Assembly (NCBI GenBank): GCA_023957115.1
Contig: JAMLHN010000002.1
Coordinates: forward strand, 1 to 64,000
DNA length: 64,000 nt
Direction of reading: 5' to 3'
Origin: Thermomicrobiales bacterium
Lineage (GTDB): Bacteria; Chloroflexota; Chloroflexia; Thermomicrobiales; UBA6265
In this document: positions 1,354-15,020 of the stretch, piece after piece
Numbering within the stretch: the first letter of the stretch is position 1
Layout: every line of letters starts with the position of its first letter
The notes under the pieces: model-generated
Told to the model about the DNA's origin: nothing
Database searches by the model: none
What the model saw: the letters and a program-made list of their open reading frames with translations, nothing else
Position numbers and translations under genes: made by a program

Positions 1354-2439
1354 TTATGCCGGGAGAGCTTGACCGGAATTCGGATCGACCATCAGCGACG
1401 TGCAGTCGACCGCTTCGAAATCGCTGCCGAGGATGCGGTTTCGGAGCTCGCGAAGATCGTCATTGTCCCAGCGATCGTCAGGGACCCCGGAGAGAAACCA
1501 ATCACTCCCGTTGTCGGCCAGCATCATTCCATAGGTCTTGAGCGCTTGCAGAATGACCTGATTCACCGGCGAGAAGTCGCTGATATCGGTCGTCGCTTTG
1601 AGCCGAAAGCGCTGTCCCATTGGCGGCAGATTGCTATCGGACGAGGCGCCCGCGTGGTGGCGTGCCGGCCAGACATATGCTTGCTGGGTTTGTGCCGCCG
1701 TGAAGCGGAGGGCGTGCGGAATAACCCCGGCAGCGATCTCCTCGTAGCGCACCAATCCCGGGAGGATCGGTAGTCCTGCCGCGTCGGCCGAGGTCCATTC
1801 GTCTGGCCGCAGCGCGTTCGAGGTGAGATCGAACTGGGCGCCCGCGTACGCCGTCCAGCTTCCATCGGCTTGTGGAGTGGCATCGTACAGCTCGTAGAGC
1901 TGGCAGGTCTCCTCCTGCACGACGATGACATGACGATCGCCGCCGCCGCAGGATCCTCCTTCGATTGGAGCGTCGGGTGGTATCGGATAAGGCCCGGGAT
2001 CGCTTTCATCGTCGATTTCAAAAGCAACGTCGACGTCCGGTTGTGTTGCCGGCACGCGCACAAAAGGGATACCCAGCGGCTGGCCTTCGTACAGACCCGA
2101 TCCGAAGTCCGGATGGAGACCGGTGTCTGGTCCTATGCTCGCGATGTAGGTCTCGGACAACGGGTCCAACGGGAGATCGGCGACCGGGGTGTTCCAGATA
2201 TTGTCTGCGGGAAACAGGGGACAGTCAGGTGGGACTTGTCCACACACCGAGCTCGTGCACCCGAGGCTACAGTCGTCCTGCGCTGCCGCAAACACCGCCG
2301 TGGCGTCGCCACGAGACCCGAGACCAAGCACCTGGGCAAAAACGCCACCGGCGAGGCCGTGCGCGAGCAGGCGACGACGGCTCGAGGGACGACGCTGCGT
2401 CCAACTTCCCATCCAGCGGTCGATGTCGTGCTGATTCAT
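1354..2439 (-). CDS. exported protein of unknown function with FPADNIWNTPV motif
   Basis: A 361-residue protein of unknown function. The N-terminus has a twin-arginine-like, arginine-rich signal (RRPSSRRRLLAHG followed by a hydrophobic stretch to about residue 50), so it is probably exported folded. A short Cys-containing segment (CSLGCTSSVCGQ) precedes the conserved-looking core FPADNIWNTPVADLPLDP at about residue 78. This DN-x-WN opening is one I associate with uncharacterised secreted proteins of Chloroflexota, Acidobacteria and fungi. The core also has DRHVIVVQEETCQLYELYDA and RHHAGASSDSN, which suggest a beta-rich domain with possible metal or catalytic His residues, but no function can be assigned. 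It lies just downstream of the Cys-rich paralogue cluster on the same strand, 46 bases after its last gene, so it may be co-transcribed. Confidence 0.8.
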   Translation of the reverse strand: MNQHDIDRWMGSWTQRRPSSRRRLLAHGLAGGVFAQVLGLGSRGDATAVFAAAQDDCSLGCTSSVCGQVPPDCPLFPADNIWNTPVADLPLDPLSETYIASIGPDTGLHPDFGSGLYEGQPLGIPFVRVPATQPDVDVAFEIDDESDPGPYPIPPDAPIEGGSCGGGDRHVIVVQEETCQLYELYDATPQADGSWTAYAGAQFDLTSNALRPDEWTSADAAGLPILPGLVRYEEIAAGVIPHALRFTAAQTQQAYVWPARHHAGASSDSNLPPMGQRFRLKATTDISDFSPVNQVILQALKTYGMMLADNGSDWFLSGVPDDRWDNDDLRELRNRILGSDFEAVDCTSLMVDPNSGQALPA

Positions 2440-2485: not shown

Positions 2486-3493
2486 CTATATATCAGTGCA
2501 GACTTGGCCTATGCAGTCCTGACCCGGCCCGCAGACAACGCGGTCGGGCCCACAAGAAAATCGATCGTAGCCGGGCATCACGCAGCGAGCGCCCAAACAG
2601 ACATTCCCGCCTATGCACGGGAAGCCGCATTCGCCGCAATTGTTGACATCGACCTGCACGTCGGTACAAATGCCGCCACAGTTCGTCTCAAAAGAGGCGC
2701 AGCCGCACGTTCCGAAGTTGCAGATTTGTGTGCAGCATTGCTCACTCGTCTCACACATGCCCTGATCCGGAACGCACGTGGGCTCCTGGTTTGCCTCGCA
2801 TTGGCAGGTGTCGAGATTCAGGGATTCATTCTCATCGAAACATTCGGGAACGCAGCTGAGACCGCATTGAATGGTTCCGTCGGGACAGGCGCAGATACCC
2901 TGGTTGGCGTCGGTGCACATACCGCCGCCGGGACAGCAGTTTTGACCGCAGGCAATCTGGGGAGGCGGGCAGCTGCTTGTCGAGCCTCCGCCGGCGTTCG
3001 TTGAGCCCGAGCCACTGGCCGTCGAACCAGATCCGGCGGTCGATTGGCCGCCGGTGGTCTGCCAGCCACCGATATCGCCGGGCTGGGGACCGCCGAAGAG
3101 GCCAGCAGCGGCACCCTGGCAACTTGAGAACGGCTGCTCGCCGGCGCCGGAGAACGCAACGATCTGGTTGCCGGCGAAGGTCACTTCGAAGTCGCTGGCC
3201 CGGCCGGTTGCCCGACCGGTCACCGATTGCGCGCCGGTGAACGATGCCTGGGTAAACGCTCCATCCGGTCCGAGCGTGAACTGCAGGGTGCCATCGTACG
3301 CGGTCGGTGCGGAGGGGCCGCCGGCGGTTTCGGCGTGAATGATCAGACTGCACGGTCCTTGGGCCAGGGTGTTCGATTCGAGGATGGGCAATGCGGCCAC
3401 GGCTCCGCCGGCGCCGACGAGACGAAGGGCATCGCGCCGGGAGAGGCGCCGGGCTCGATTGCGGGTCCAGGTATCGAAGCGTTTCGCGTCCAT
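2486..3493 (-). CDS. Tat-exported Cys-rich protein, paralogue 3 of a local family
   Basis: 335 residues. The first ~45 residues are a Tat signal (RNRARRLSRRDALRLVGAGG then a hydrophobic run). Residues ~46-145 form the family domain shared with the two upstream neighbours: it starts CSLIIHAET, has GTLQFTLGPDGAF, then VTGRATGR, then a Gly near IVAFSGAGEQPFSSC and ends DIGGWQTTG. After a Ser/Gly-rich linker (~145-170) comes a tail with over 25 cysteines containing units such as CGQNCCPGGGMC, CETSEQCCTQIC, and NNCGECGFPCIGGNVC. Such tails resemble disulfide-rich extracellular repeats common in myxobacterial and Chloroflexota secreted proteins. The gene follows its paralogue by 24 bases on the same strand. 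Function unknown; a surface or matrix role is inferred from export and the Cys repeats. Confidence 0.85.
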   Translation of the reverse strand: MDAKRFDTWTRNRARRLSRRDALRLVGAGGAVAALPILESNTLAQGPCSLIIHAETAGGPSAPTAYDGTLQFTLGPDGAFTQASFTGAQSVTGRATGRASDFEVTFAGNQIVAFSGAGEQPFSSCQGAAAGLFGGPQPGDIGGWQTTGGQSTAGSGSTASGSGSTNAGGGSTSSCPPPQIACGQNCCPGGGMCTDANQGICACPDGTIQCGLSCVPECFDENESLNLDTCQCEANQEPTCVPDQGMCETSEQCCTQICNFGTCGCASFETNCGGICTDVQVDVNNCGECGFPCIGGNVCLGARCVMPGYDRFSCGPDRVVCGPGQDCIGQVCTDI

Positions 3494-3517
3494 GAGGGAC
3501 CTCCCAATCGGTGGCGA

Positions 3518-4519
3518 CTATTGGCACGAGCCGTTTAGGCACGTGGTACCGATACAGGTGTTGTTGCAGTTTCCGCAGTTGTTGCTGTCGGAGAAGGTGT
3601 CGACACACATGTCGTTACAGACAACCAAGCCACAGCTATCGCAGGTTCCGCCGTTGCACCATCCGCTGCAACACTGACTGCTGAAGCTGCATGCGCCGCC
3701 AAAGTCGATACACCCACCTCCGCCATCTCCGTTGCCGCCACCGTCGTCGCCGGTACAGACGCTGCCGACGCACGATTGGGTATCGACATCACAGGCATTG
3801 AAGCAGGCTCCGCAATGAGCCAGATTGTCCGAGAGGACGATGCAGCTTTCACCGCAAATGGTGTCACTGCAGGTGCGACATTCGTTGTCGGTACACCAGC
3901 CGGAGCAGCATTCGCTGCTGGTATTGCATTGGCTGTGCAGCTCCAGACAGGCGCTGCCGGGTTGATCTCCTCCTTGCGGTTGGGACCCGGCTTGGGTTTG
4001 CGGTTGAGTTTGGAGGGCCGGGGGAGCCGATGTCTGTCCGGAATCGCCTTCGCTCGATTCGGCTCGCCAGGTGCCAAGCTGGCCAGTGTCTGGGTTGGCC
4101 AAAAAGCCAACGATTGGACTGGAGCACTGTTCAATCGGGCCGTTGGCCACCCCGGTCAGTGCGAGGGTCGTGCCATCGCCAAGTGCGGCAAGCAGATCGA
4201 CGGCCGGTCCGGTGGCCTGACCGACGACCGAGGCGGGACCTTGGCCGGCAAGACTGAGGGACCCGGTATCGATGGCGCCGCCGTTGCCCATATCGAGCAC
4301 GAGTGTGCCGGAGACGGTTTGGCTGGAGTCGAATGAAGAGGTGAGGGTAACTGCATACGTGCAGGAGCCGTTGCTCCCGTCACCGAATTGGGCGTTGGCG
4401 CGTTGGAGGCGTGTCAGGGCCGCGGCGACGCCGGCGGTGAGCGACCAGCCGAGGATGGACCGGCGGTTGGCGGTGGCAGAGCGTGTGCGCGTCCACGTAT
4501 CGAAGCGGTTGCTATTCAT
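3518..4519 (-). CDS. Tat-exported Cys-rich protein, paralogue 2 of a local family
   Basis: 333 residues from the ATG at 4519, chosen because it gives a clean signal (MNSNRFDTWTRTRSATANRR then a hydrophobic segment ending near AQFGDG) matching the start of the next paralogue (FDTWTRNRARR). A longer frame reaches 4603 but would run back through the preceding gene. The family domain spans ~40-150: CTYAVTLTSS, GTLVLDMGNGGAIDTGS, VVGQATGPAVDL, LALTGVANGPIEQC and LGTWRAE. A Gln/Pro/Gly linker follows, then a Cys-rich tail with two copies of the CxxSSxCCSGWC type (SECCSGWCTDNEC, SQCCSGWCNGGTC) and NNCGNCNNTC. Only 5 bases separate it from the upstream gene, so translation is probably coupled. No enzymatic motif is visible; function unknown. 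Confidence 0.82.
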   Translation of the reverse strand: MNSNRFDTWTRTRSATANRRSILGWSLTAGVAAALTRLQRANAQFGDGSNGSCTYAVTLTSSFDSSQTVSGTLVLDMGNGGAIDTGSLSLAGQGPASVVGQATGPAVDLLAALGDGTTLALTGVANGPIEQCSSPIVGFLANPDTGQLGTWRAESSEGDSGQTSAPPALQTQPQTQAGSQPQGGDQPGSACLELHSQCNTSSECCSGWCTDNECRTCSDTICGESCIVLSDNLAHCGACFNACDVDTQSCVGSVCTGDDGGGNGDGGGGCIDFGGACSFSSQCCSGWCNGGTCDSCGLVVCNDMCVDTFSDSNNCGNCNNTCIGTTCLNGSCQ

Positions 4520-4524
4520 GACGG

Positions 4525-4935
4525 TCAGGCTTGTGTGGCGTTCCAAACGCCGATATTTTGCAGACCGGTGCCGACGAACGCTCCACCAAAATCGCCACTG
4601 CATTGGTCGATCGGGAAGACTCCACTACCAGTAAAGGTGATGGTGGAGTTAGGGGCCGATCCGACGCGGAGGCGAATCGACCGGCCAGTGGCCTGGCCGA
4701 CGACTGGAGCGGTCGTGCCGTCGGAGAATTGAAAGGTCCCGGAGTCGATGGCGCCGTCCTGCCCGACGGAGAACGTAAGCGTTCCCTGAAAGGTTTGCCC
4801 GGCGTTGGGTCCAAATTGGACGACGCCGCTGATGAAGAGCGAGCATCCCTCTCCATTGAATTGGGTTAACGAGCTGTATCTGTGCGGAAAGGAATTGACG
4901 CCTGACGCAATGCGCTTTGCAGCCGAACGTGCCAT
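4525..4935 (-). CDS. small protein made only of the local family domain, paralogue 1
   Basis: 136 residues from ATG 4935, which has GGAGG 8 bases upstream; upstream in-frame codons lack a better site. The protein is almost entirely the ~100-residue domain that its two downstream neighbours carry after their Tat signals: CSLFISGVVQFG, GTLTFSVGQDGAIDSG, VVGQATGRSIRL, ITFTGSGVFPIDQC, and the closing IGVWNATQ. It has no Cys-rich tail and no clear signal peptide (the start MARSAAKRIASG is basic but not followed by a hydrophobic segment), so it might be cytoplasmic or exported by another route. It is the first gene of the three-paralogue run. Function unknown. Confidence 0.72.
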   Translation of the reverse strand: MARSAAKRIASGVNSFPHRYSSLTQFNGEGCSLFISGVVQFGPNAGQTFQGTLTFSVGQDGAIDSGTFQFSDGTTAPVVGQATGRSIRLRVGSAPNSTITFTGSGVFPIDQCSGDFGGAFVGTGLQNIGVWNATQA

Positions 4936-12733: not shown

Positions 12734-14092
12734 ATGCAGTTGATCGATCAGGAGACGACACCGGTCATTTATCGTGATTTGCAGCGGCCGTTGCCGACCA
12801 TCGTGCGTGGCGAGGGGATCTACCTCTGGGATTCGACGGGGAAACGCTATATCGACGGAGCGGCGGGGTCCTCGGCGGTGGTCAACATCGGACATGGGGT
12901 GCCCGAGGTCATCGAGGCGATGACGGAGCAGGCGCGGAAGATCGCCTACGTACCGACGCATGCCTTTTCCAGCGAGCCGATCGAAGCATGCGCTCAGACG
13001 CTGGTGGAGGAGTTTGCCCCGGCCGGTTTGGACAAGGTCTGGTTCGTCTCGGGGGGCTCGGAGGCGACGGAAAATGCCGTGAAGATCGCGCTCCAGTACC
13101 AGCGGGATCGAGGGAAGGGAACCAAGCAGCTGGTCATCGGGCGGTGGCAGAGCTTCCATGGCGCCACGCTTGCCTCTCTTGGATATGGAGGCAACGCCGG
13201 CCGGCGCAAGAAATACCAGGGAATACTCTCCACGGCCGAACATATCGGGCCTTGCTTCCCCTACCGTCATGCCACCGGGGACGAGATCGAATACGGACTC
13301 GCTCAGGCGGATCAGCTGGATTATCTGATCCAGCAGGTGGGGGCGGAGAACGTGGCGGCATTCATCGCCGAACCGGTGGTCGGCGCAACCACCGGGGCGG
13401 TGCCGGCCACGACCGGGTATTTCGAGCGGATCCGTGAGATCTGCGACCGGCATGACGTCCTGTTCATTGCCGACGAGGTGATGAGCGGCTTTGGACGTAC
13501 CGGCAAGAAGTTCGGGATCGACCATTGGGAGGCGCCACCCGATCTGATCGCCTGCGCCAAGGGAATTTCCGGCGGCTATACGCCGCTGGGGGCGGTGCTG
13601 GTCCGGCCGGAGATTGTCGGTCAGGTGCGCGGGACCGGTGGGTCGTTCGTGATCGGCCATACAGCTGGCGGAAATCCACTCTCGACCGCCATCGGCAAGG
13701 CGGTGCTCGACTACACCGTCAAGCATCGCCTGGTCGACAACGCGGAGATCGTCGGAGCGTATTTCAAGGAAAAGTTGGTCGAGCTGATGGCGGTTCACCC
13801 GATCATCGGCGACGTGCGCGGACTCGGCCTCATGCTCGGGATCGAATTCGTCGCCGACCGGGAGACCAAGCGGCCGTTTCCGCTCGAGCTTCAGGTAAGT
13901 AGACGGATCGGCGACGCGACCCTCGAGCGCGGGCTCGTTTCCTACCCGGGACAGGGTACGGTCGACGGGGTGGTGGGCGATCATCTCCTGTGCACGCCGC
14001 CGCTCGTGATTACGAAACTGCAGATCGATGAGCTTATCGAGATTCTGGACGCGTCCCTCCATTCGGTCGAACGCGACCTCCGGGTGGTGTAG
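12734..14092 (+). CDS. class III PLP-dependent aminotransferase
   Basis: 452 residues. Fold type I, class III (ornithine/GABA/omega-amino acid aminotransferase family). Visible marks are WDSTGKRYIDGAAGSSAVVNIGH, the PLP-phosphate site SGGSEATENAVK, the SFHGATLASLGYGG segment, the PLP-ring Asp in LFIADEVMSGFGRTGK, and the Schiff-base lysine in LIACAKGISGGYTPLGAV; GTGGSFVIGHTAGGNPLS follows. It transfers an amino group between an amine or omega-amino acid and pyruvate or 2-oxoglutarate in the cytoplasm; the substrate cannot be assigned. The following gene starts 5 bases after its stop, so the two are probably translated from one message. Confidence 0.93.
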   Translation: MQLIDQETTPVIYRDLQRPLPTIVRGEGIYLWDSTGKRYIDGAAGSSAVVNIGHGVPEVIEAMTEQARKIAYVPTHAFSSEPIEACAQTLVEEFAPAGLDKVWFVSGGSEATENAVKIALQYQRDRGKGTKQLVIGRWQSFHGATLASLGYGGNAGRRKKYQGILSTAEHIGPCFPYRHATGDEIEYGLAQADQLDYLIQQVGAENVAAFIAEPVVGATTGAVPATTGYFERIREICDRHDVLFIADEVMSGFGRTGKKFGIDHWEAPPDLIACAKGISGGYTPLGAVLVRPEIVGQVRGTGGSFVIGHTAGGNPLSTAIGKAVLDYTVKHRLVDNAEIVGAYFKEKLVELMAVHPIIGDVRGLGLMLGIEFVADRETKRPFPLELQVSRRIGDATLERGLVSYPGQGTVDGVVGDHLLCTPPLVITKLQIDELIEILDASLHSVERDLRVV

Positions 14093-14096
14093 CGAA

Positions 14097-15020
14097 GTGC
14101 GTGAGATCGATTTCGAGGTTGCTCCGCGATTCGTGTTTCTGGGGGATTCGATCGTTTCGGATTGGCGCAATCCGCAAGCGACCACGAGCCGCGCTGTGGT
14201 GCAGGCGCTTGGCGATCTCGGATTCGAAACGGTCTATATGGAACCACGACGCAACAGCGCCACGGTGGGACTCCTGGGGCAGCGTGGGTCTGAGCCGGTG
14301 CGGTCGTTCAATGCGTTGTGGACGGGTGTGCAGTACCGCACCGTCGATCTTCCCGCCCGGTGGGAGCTGGAAGCGTGGATCGGGCAGTTTGCCGCCACGT
14401 CCGGCGTCATCGTCCTGCTCGATGGTATGCCCGAGATGTTCGAGCGCGGTCTGGCCGAATTCGAGCAGGACGACGTGCTGATCCTGGTCGAACGTCCGGA
14501 GCTCGGCGGAGATTGGGGCCGATCGGTTCTTCGCCGGCTGGGTGAGTCCGATGCAACCATTGGTTTTCGACCGGCCGTCTTGCCTGGCTCCTGGGATGTT
14601 CCTCGGTCCGGGACCGTTCTGGTTGCGTATGACGATGCCGATCTGGCTCGTGCGGTTGCGGCCACTGTGCCCGATGCGCGGCGAATCGTGACCGGGAGCG
14701 CCGACCTGCCAGATTGGGACTATCTGCCGGAGATCGAGCTCCCGGCCGTCTATGGCGCCGCGGAGCGCGTGCTGGTGGTCGATAGCGCCGAACGCCCCAT
14801 CGCCCCTGCCCGGGTTTGGTTGCCACGAGCGAACGGCGCTGCGGCCTGGGGTATGGTGCAGGCGGGCGAGATCGATGAGTCGGTTGCGGTTCGGTTCGAC
14901 GACCTGGAGAATGTTTGGGACCGCGAGGCGCCGGACCTGCCGGAGCGGCTGGACGCTCGCTGGGTGGCGAGGGGATTGGTGGAGATGTGGCGGCATCGGA
15001 GCATCGGCTCCGAGGGGTGA
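14097..15020 (+). CDS. CgeB/glycosyltransferase-like protein of unknown function
   Basis: 307 residues from GTG 14097, four bases after the aminotransferase stop; a frame extending to 14028 would overlap that gene. The opening FVFLGDSIVSDWRNPQATTSRAVVQALGDLGFETVYMEPRRNS resembles the N-terminal Rossmann half of CgeB-type glycosyltransferases (a GDS-W-N-ATT-R pattern followed by a helix and a strand ending in an acidic residue). A second half with GTVLVAYDDADLARAV and RVLVVDSAERP could be the nucleotide-binding lobe. The protein is short for a full two-domain enzyme and the donor-site residues are not clear, so the assignment is an inference from the fold pattern only. Confidence 0.65.
   Translation: MREIDFEVAPRFVFLGDSIVSDWRNPQATTSRAVVQALGDLGFETVYMEPRRNSATVGLLGQRGSEPVRSFNALWTGVQYRTVDLPARWELEAWIGQFAATSGVIVLLDGMPEMFERGLAEFEQDDVLILVERPELGGDWGRSVLRRLGESDATIGFRPAVLPGSWDVPRSGTVLVAYDDADLARAVAATVPDARRIVTGSADLPDWDYLPEIELPAVYGAAERVLVVDSAERPIAPARVWLPRANGAAAWGMVQAGEIDESVAVRFDDLENVWDREAPDLPERLDARWVARGLVEMWRHRSIGSEG

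What the first reader, a model, noticed from the sequence alone, without database searches (positions are those of the whole stretch)
2486..4935. Three tandem paralogues define an undescribed ~100-residue exported domain, two with Cys-rich tails
Three adjacent minus-strand genes share a domain: start Cys, GTL-f--G-dGAid-g, V-GqATGr, a Gly-containing strand, a second Cys, and a closing iG-W. One gene is the bare domain; two have a Tat signal in front and a disulfide-rich tail behind, with repeats such as ECCSGWC. Genes are separated by 5 and 24 bases. Export folded by Tat fits a protein with many disulfides. The family is not one I recognise.
Basis: partly seen in the sequence, partly recalled or inferred. 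Interest (0 to 1): 0.65.

Follow-up and report, generated by a model that had tools for sequence, protein, structure and literature searches.

The report
Exported barrel proteins with knottin tails
Three neighbouring genes of a Chloroflexota bacterium encode sibling proteins built on a small eight-stranded barrel that no public family model describes; two carry export signals and disulfide-rich tails spaced like cystine-knot peptides, and distant cousins of the barrel form the probable outer part of membrane protein kinases, so it is probably a new extracellular binding module.

Summary
Three minus-strand genes (4525-4935, 3518-4519, 2486-3493; gaps 5 and 24 nt) share a homologous ~105-residue domain (E 8e-12 and 2e-11 to the first). 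No Pfam, NCBIfam or PHROGs model describes it. AlphaFold2 predicts an eight-stranded antiparallel barrel (pLDDT 92) of avidin/TbpB type. Its two Cys occur together in all 15 barrels of the host's family and are both missing in 7 of 7 barrels from other families, so they probably form a disulfide. The tails are of known kinds: Stig1-like repeats (PF04885) plus cystine-knot-spaced modules C-x6-C-x5-CC-x3-C-x4-C. The trio is old: each gene has its own strongly supported orthologue, in the same order, in another genus (Thermomicrobiales MAG ACE_CHL14). All three bare first genes known lack any export signal and nearly touch the Tat-leader gene behind them, which suggests co-export in a complex (inferred). 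Remote relatives are secreted multi-barrel proteins and C-terminal, probably extracellular domains of Ser/Thr kinases elsewhere in Chloroflexota. Best reading: a new extracellular binding/sensing barrel family, used here as a hetero-assembly on knottin/Stig1 stalks. Ligand and function are untested. New variant of a known kind; interest about 0.5.

The parts
4525..4935 (-). Gene 1 (P0001, 136 aa): bare barrel without signal peptide or tail; GGAGG about 8 nt upstream of the ATG
   Evidence: 98-99% supported orthologue of the first gene of the trio in G253 C30, itself signal-less
4528..4845 (-). Barrel domain of gene 1 (Cys4 of the domain to the end)
   Evidence: AlphaFold2 pLDDT 92.4, eight strands
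3518..4519 (-). Gene 2 (P0002, 333 aa): RFD-box plus twin-Arg leader, barrel, linker, two knottin-spaced modules, Stig1-like segments
4388..4519 (-). Tat-type leader of gene 2 (MNSNRFDTWTR...NRRSILG...ANAQ)
   Evidence: twin Arg invariant in all leader-bearing members; Pfam TAT_signal 0.13, below cut-off
4058..4363 (-). Barrel domain of gene 2
3878..3949 (-). Knottin-spaced module 1 of gene 2 (CLELHSQCNTSSECCSGWCTDNEC)
   Evidence: exact pattern C6C5CC3C4C
3641..3712 (-). Knottin-spaced module 2 of gene 2 (CIDFGGACSFSSQCCSGWCNGGTC)
   Evidence: weak PDB match to omega-atracotoxin-Hv1a, E 0.34, same spacing
3524..3625 (-). Stig1-like segment of gene 2
   Evidence: PF04885 0.0024, below cut-off; MXAN_6577-like NF041328 1.1e-4, below cut-off
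2486..3493 (-). Gene 3 (P0003, 335 aa): Tat-type leader, barrel, Ser/Gly linker, Cys-rich tail
3359..3493 (-). Tat-type leader of gene 3 (MDAKRFDTWTR...SRRDALRLVGAGG...LAQ)
   Evidence: TIGR01409 E 0.0087, 16.4 of 16.7 bits
3050..3352 (-). Barrel domain of gene 3
2705..2776 (-). Knottin-spaced module of gene 3 (CVPDQGMCETSEQCCTQICNFGTC)
2495..2689 (-). Stig1-like repeat of gene 3
   Evidence: PF04885 2.7e-5, 26.5 bits, over the cut-off in the genome scan; 8.6e-5, 23.4 of 24.1 bits on the whole protein
1354..2439 (-). Next gene downstream (P0004, 361 aa), same strand, 46 nt gap, twin-Arg leader, no Pfam or NCBIfam family; possible fourth operon member, linkage not tested

Best explanation
A three-gene cassette for an extracellular, barrel-based binding assembly. 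Each protein has the same small eight-stranded antiparallel barrel (avidin/TbpB-like architecture), locked in this lineage by one disulfide (Cys4-Cys85 of the domain alignment). Genes 2 and 3 carry Tat-type leaders and, after a flexible linker, a protease-resistant stalk of knottin-spaced modules and Stig1-like repeats that holds the barrel at or near the cell surface or matrix. Gene 1 has no signal and is translated directly before gene 2; it most likely pairs with a sibling barrel in the cytoplasm and is carried out by Tat as a hitchhiker, giving a hetero-oligomer. The barrel then binds a ligand (protein, glycan or small molecule) outside the cell, as the relatives that form the outer domain of membrane kinases suggest. 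Shown: homology, fold prediction, Cys co-occurrence, tail types, retention of the trio, missing signal. Inferred: the disulfide itself, operon expression, pairing, hitchhiking, surface location, ligand binding.
For: Homology of the barrels. Confident barrel model with Foldseek probability near 1 to NHBA, avidins and TbpB barrels, and to TbpB and haemophore HphA again from gene 2. Cys pair present in 15/15 family barrels and absent in 7/7 others. Stig1 repeats over cut-off in relatives' tails. The exact knottin spacing is found in the own genome at three places in genes 2 and 3 plus one unexamined place on another contig, recurs in orthologues, and in the genes that carry it was not reached in 2000 shuffles each. 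Trio positions 1, 2, 3 are each orthologous between two genera (supports 98-100). Bare genes have no hydrophobic leader (maximum KD below 0.6) in 3/3 cases, have a Shine-Dalgarno-like sequence before their ATG, and junctions of 5 nt, 4 nt and overlapping. The barrel profile finds the C-terminal domain of Ser/Thr kinases after a membrane-like segment; hhalign score 38 against at most 17.7 in 200 column shuffles and 22.3 reversed. Hitchhiker precedent: PaoABC (PMC4273604).
Against: No ligand, expression or localisation data. No conserved polar pocket or functional neighbours were found: the trio's flanks differ between genomes (GroEL and enoyl-CoA hydratase in G253; hydrolase and P0004 here). 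Foldseek E-values are about 0.007-0.1, so the fold match is architectural rather than proof of common descent. Monophyly of the bare genes is not rejected (p-AU 0.18), so independent loss of signals is not shown. Formal Tat models score just below cut-off. The kinase relation covers 70 columns at 88% probability.
Confidence: 0.45

Rival explanations
1. The tail is the active part: secreted knottin/Stig1 modules act on other organisms or their proteases (inhibitor or toxin-like), and the barrel is only a carrier; the bare barrel stays in the cytoplasm as a chaperone or protective partner.
For: Exact cystine-knot spacing, weak matches to omega-atracotoxin and to conotoxin O-superfamily PF08087 in a relative (0.0036, below cut-off); gene 1 lacks a signal.
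Against: Toxin matches are below significance and spacing alone is shared by harmless knottins. The knottin is missing in several relatives that keep barrel plus Stig1, and one G253 member is leader plus barrel with no tail, so the barrel is the constant part.
Confidence: 0.17
2. Structural matrix or coat protein: the Cys-rich tails cross-link into an extracellular layer and the barrels are assembly joints; no specific ligand.
For: 28-30 tail Cys; several copies per genome (5 and 6); Stig1-repeat proteins are numerous in the family; one in the own genome ends in an LPATG-like sorting signal.
Against: The barrel also serves as outer domain of kinases and as tail-less secreted double barrels; each trio position is kept as a distinct orthologue.
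Confidence: 0.2
3. Gene 1 is a decaying fragment that lost leader and tail, with no function.
For: No leader, no tail.
Against: A 54% identical signal-less orthologue in another genus with the barrel core, Cys pair and start site with Shine-Dalgarno intact; a third signal-less first gene in the G253 C1 array.
Confidence: 0.07
4. The barrel is a true, highly diverged member of the TbpB/HphA surface-protein barrel family and binds an iron protein or haem.
For: The TbpB C-lobe barrel is the top PDB profile hit with the wide alignment (E 0.13); PF01298 0.094 in one relative; PF22829 HphA_C 0.064 in one member; closing motif GxFxGPxxxDxGxW aligns with GGFYGPKAEELGGW.
Against: No score is significant on its own; no PF01298 member in 151 Chloroflexota genomes (but the controls rang nowhere either); no lipobox, no TbpA-like partner seen near the trio.
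Confidence: 0.11

Closest known systems
TbpB/NHBA/HphA surface-protein beta-barrels (PF01298, PF22829)
   Same: Eight-stranded small barrel; best Foldseek hit (NHBA 6cuj, E 0.014, prob 1.00); closing motif aligns; displayed outside the cell
   Different: No significant sequence score; no lipoprotein signal; disulfide and Cys-rich tail instead; PF01298 not detected in the phylum sample
Avidin/streptavidin (PF01382)
   Same: Eight-stranded barrel (TM 0.59-0.61 to chicken avidin); chicken avidin also has its only Cys at residues 4 and 83, the domain alignment here at 4 and 85
   Different: No sequence similarity (hhalign aligns one column); only one conserved Trp instead of avidin's four; no Pfam hit
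Stig1 (PF04885) / MXAN_6577-like Cys-rich proteins (NF041328)
   Same: Tail repeats of the type CGxxCVDxxxDxxNCGxCGxxCxxGxxCxxGxC; over cut-off in four close relatives and in gene 3 in the genome scan
   Different: The family models do not include this barrel; window tails mix in knottin-spaced modules
Inhibitor cystine knot (knottin) peptides
   Same: C-x6-C-x5-CC-x3-C-x4-C, the same spacing as omega-atracotoxin-Hv1a
   Different: Modules inside a larger bacterial protein; disulfide pattern not determined; sequence match not significant
PaoABC and HybOC Tat hitchhiker complexes
   Same: Operon in which signal-less subunit(s) accompany a Tat-signal subunit
   Different: Those are cofactor enzymes with unrelated subunits; here subunits are paralogous barrels and co-export is only inferred

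Membership tests
Avidin (PF01382) | Significant match to the family profile | tested here: not met
   No hit for any of 15 members at E<=10; hhalign to avidin aligns one column
Avidin (PF01382) | Conserved aromatic cage (several Trp) for biotin | tested here: not met
   Only one conserved Trp, at the C-terminal end
Avidin (PF01382) | Eight-stranded barrel fold | tested here: met
   AlphaFold2 pLDDT 92.4; TM 0.59-0.61 to avidin
TbpB barrel (PF01298) | Significant profile match | tested here: inconclusive
   0.094 in one remote relative; PDB TbpB E 0.13 as top hits; none in window proteins
TbpB barrel (PF01298) | Surface lipoprotein with lipobox | tested here: not met
   Leaders are Tat-type with no Cys at the predicted cleavage site
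Stig1 (PF04885) | Profile match over gathering score in the tail | tested here: inconclusive
   Gene 3: 26.5 bits in the genome scan but 23.4 of 24.1 on the whole protein; gene 2 below; relatives 42-95 bits
Knottin (ICK) | C-C-CC-C-C spacing | tested here: met
   Exact C6C5CC3C4C in genes 2 (twice) and 3
Knottin (ICK) | I-IV, II-V, III-VI disulfide knot | not testable with these tools
   AlphaFold2 of gene 2 gave pLDDT 77-89 only for the last 65 residues; bonding not read out
Tat substrate | Twin-Arg n-region with a weakly hydrophobic core, and a significant signal model match | tested here: inconclusive
   RR invariant in the leaders; core KD 1.2-1.7; profile models slightly below cut-off
Tat hitchhiker complex | Signal-less subunit exported only with a Tat-bearing partner | not testable with these tools
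   Only missing signal and gene order shown

The most novel reading that the evidence does not exclude
A previously undescribed superfamily of extracellular binding barrels, spread through several Chloroflexota families as secreted multi-barrel proteins, as outer domains of transmembrane Ser/Thr kinases, and here as a Tat-exported hetero-complex of paralogous barrels in which a signal-less barrel hitchhikes on siblings that carry bacterial knottin stalks.
Probability: 0.3. Interest if true: 0.7.

Novelty: new variant of a known kind. Interest (0 to 1): 0.5.

Why it matters
If right, it defines a domain family for proteins without any family model in Chloroflexota, links secreted proteins to the unknown outer domains of their kinases, and offers a natural case of bacterial knottin-like modules and of Tat hitchhiking between paralogues that can be tested in laboratory hosts.

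Tried and rejected
Pfam, NCBIfam and PHROGs for the domain: only sub-threshold Ig/PKD-like matches, rejected because the model is a barrel. PDB sequence search with the first small alignments: MIF and others, chance. The G143 match at 1.2e-4 lies in a 729-aa ORF that reads as unrelated (start like cysteinyl-tRNA synthetase) and lacks the domain's first half; rejected. Avidin and TbpB_B_D families in Chloroflexota: none convincing, though the TbpB control rang nowhere, so absence is not shown. Plasmid and viral collections: nothing. Missed signal peptide or frameshift before gene 1: no leader-like stretch with a preceding RR in any frame. Monophyly of bare genes: not rejected, so a claim of independent signal loss was dropped. 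Promoter and terminator scan and Rfam: nothing above chance. The first genome-contig scan failed for lack of a conserved stretch, the second worked. Paper searches found nothing on this family.

Full report
OBSERVATION. The domain similarity is real: searching the window's own genome with the gene-1 domain finds gene 2 at E 8e-12 and gene 3 at 2e-11, and two more full proteins of the leader-barrel-Cys-tail type on contigs 25 and 2.

FAMILY MODELS. No Pfam, NCBIfam or PHROGs model describes the domain; the few matches are weak and inconsistent among members. The tails are of known kinds. Stig1 (PF04885) is just under its cut-off in gene 3 as a whole protein, over it in the genome scan, and clearly over it in four relatives with two to six repeats. 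In the own genome the exact pattern is found four times, three of them in genes 2 and 3; the fourth, on contig 3, was not examined. In each gene that carries it, the pattern was not reached in 2000 composition shuffles of its tail, and it recurs in the G253 orthologues and in G401.

FOLD. AlphaFold2 on 15 barrels gives pLDDT 92.4, pTM 0.82, eight antiparallel strands. Foldseek puts it near NHBA (E 0.014, probability 1.00), shwanavidin, TbpB, nitrobindin and avidin (TM 0.59-0.61). A model of gene 2 (low overall confidence, barrel about 70) gives NanoLuc, TbpB and the haemophore HphA. The match is one of architecture: the best E-values are about 0.007-0.014, and avidin shows no sequence relation.

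RANGE. In the 32 held genomes of the same family, six have the domain; the other 29 genomes of the order have none with the first profile. With the 15-barrel profile the class search added secreted double-barrel proteins in G454 and G458 and three-barrel proteins in G493. These lack both Cys; the family barrels have both: 15/15 against 0/7. Joint presence and absence of two distant Cys is what a disulfide predicts, though the groups are also lineages, so this may be a single event.

KINASES. With 22 barrels the phylum search added a secreted two-barrel protein in G053 (5e-9) and the C-terminal region of a Ser/Thr kinase in G321 (1.9e-4). The kinase domain is PF00069 at 4.5e-41, followed by a hydrophobic, membrane-like segment and then the barrel-like domain. 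Eleven genomes of that family carry a related C-terminal domain. hhalign of the barrels to nine of these gives 88% probability over 70 columns, score 38, against at most 17.7 in 200 column shuffles and 22.3 for the reversed profile. I take the relation as likely. The topology outside the cell is inferred from the domain order.

TRIO. In trees, gene 1 groups with the first gene of the G253 C30 array (98-99), gene 2 with the second (100) and gene 3 with the third (98). So the order bare, leader-tail, leader-tail was set before the two genera split. The G253 C1 array has the same first and second type, and a third gene with leader but no tail. The surroundings are not shared. The three first genes have no hydrophobic leader in frame and none with a preceding RR in the other frames, but do have a Shine-Dalgarno-like sequence before the ATG. 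They end 5 nt before, 4 nt before, or overlapping the start of the Tat-leader gene. That is the arrangement of a coupled operon; whether the bare genes lost signals once or twice is undecided (p-AU 0.18).

MECHANISM. A signal-less paralogue kept for long in front of Tat-leader siblings is best explained by assembly before export, as shown for PaoABC in E. coli (PMC4273604). Stable extracellular barrels on disulfide stalks, plus the use of the same barrel as a kinase outer domain, point to ligand binding. I put about 0.9 on the fold, 0.5 on extracellular binding, and 0.35 on hitchhiking.

COMPARISON. It works like a small binding barrel of the avidin/TbpB kind but is not filed in either family: avidin's sequence features were tested and not met, TbpB is inconclusive. 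With the wide profile the TbpB C-lobe barrel is the top PDB hit (E 0.13), covering strands 3 to 8 and aligning GGFYGPKAEELGGW with GxFxGPxxxDxGxW; one relative has PF01298 at 0.094. These are leads for a common origin, not proof.

VERDICT. Real and undescribed as a family, with a known type of fold and known types of tail modules: a new variant of a known kind. Interest 0.5, limited by the absence of any functional data.

Noticed in passing
L007:1294-2235 (+), own genome contig 2: A Tat-leader protein made of Stig1-like repeats ending in TLPATGSGATSM, a hydrophobic stretch and Arg, a sortase-like cell-wall sorting signal; suggests surface anchoring for this class of Cys-rich protein.
   Followed up: no
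window 1354-2439 (-): P0004, a 361-aa twin-Arg leader protein (DNIWNTPVADLP..., PARHHAGASSDSNLPPMG) directly downstream of the trio, without a Pfam or NCBIfam family.
   Followed up: partly
L077-L087: Ser/Thr kinases of a large-genome Chloroflexota family share a C-terminal domain without a Pfam model that is related to the barrel.
   Followed up: partly
L068:3642-4445, L069:4986-5717, L071:973-1809, L070:4935-5948 and 13819-14964: Proteins made only of two or three tandem barrels (G458, G454, G053 with Sec-type leaders; G493 with three barrels) with no family model.
   Followed up: partly
all leader-bearing members, e.g. window 4519 and 3493 (-): A conserved RFDxxxR box a few to fifteen residues ahead of the twin Arg in the leaders; role unknown.
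   Followed up: partly
G404 contigs 644 and 704: ORFs of 913 and 962 residues holding many tandem Stig1-like repeats in a relative.
   Followed up: no
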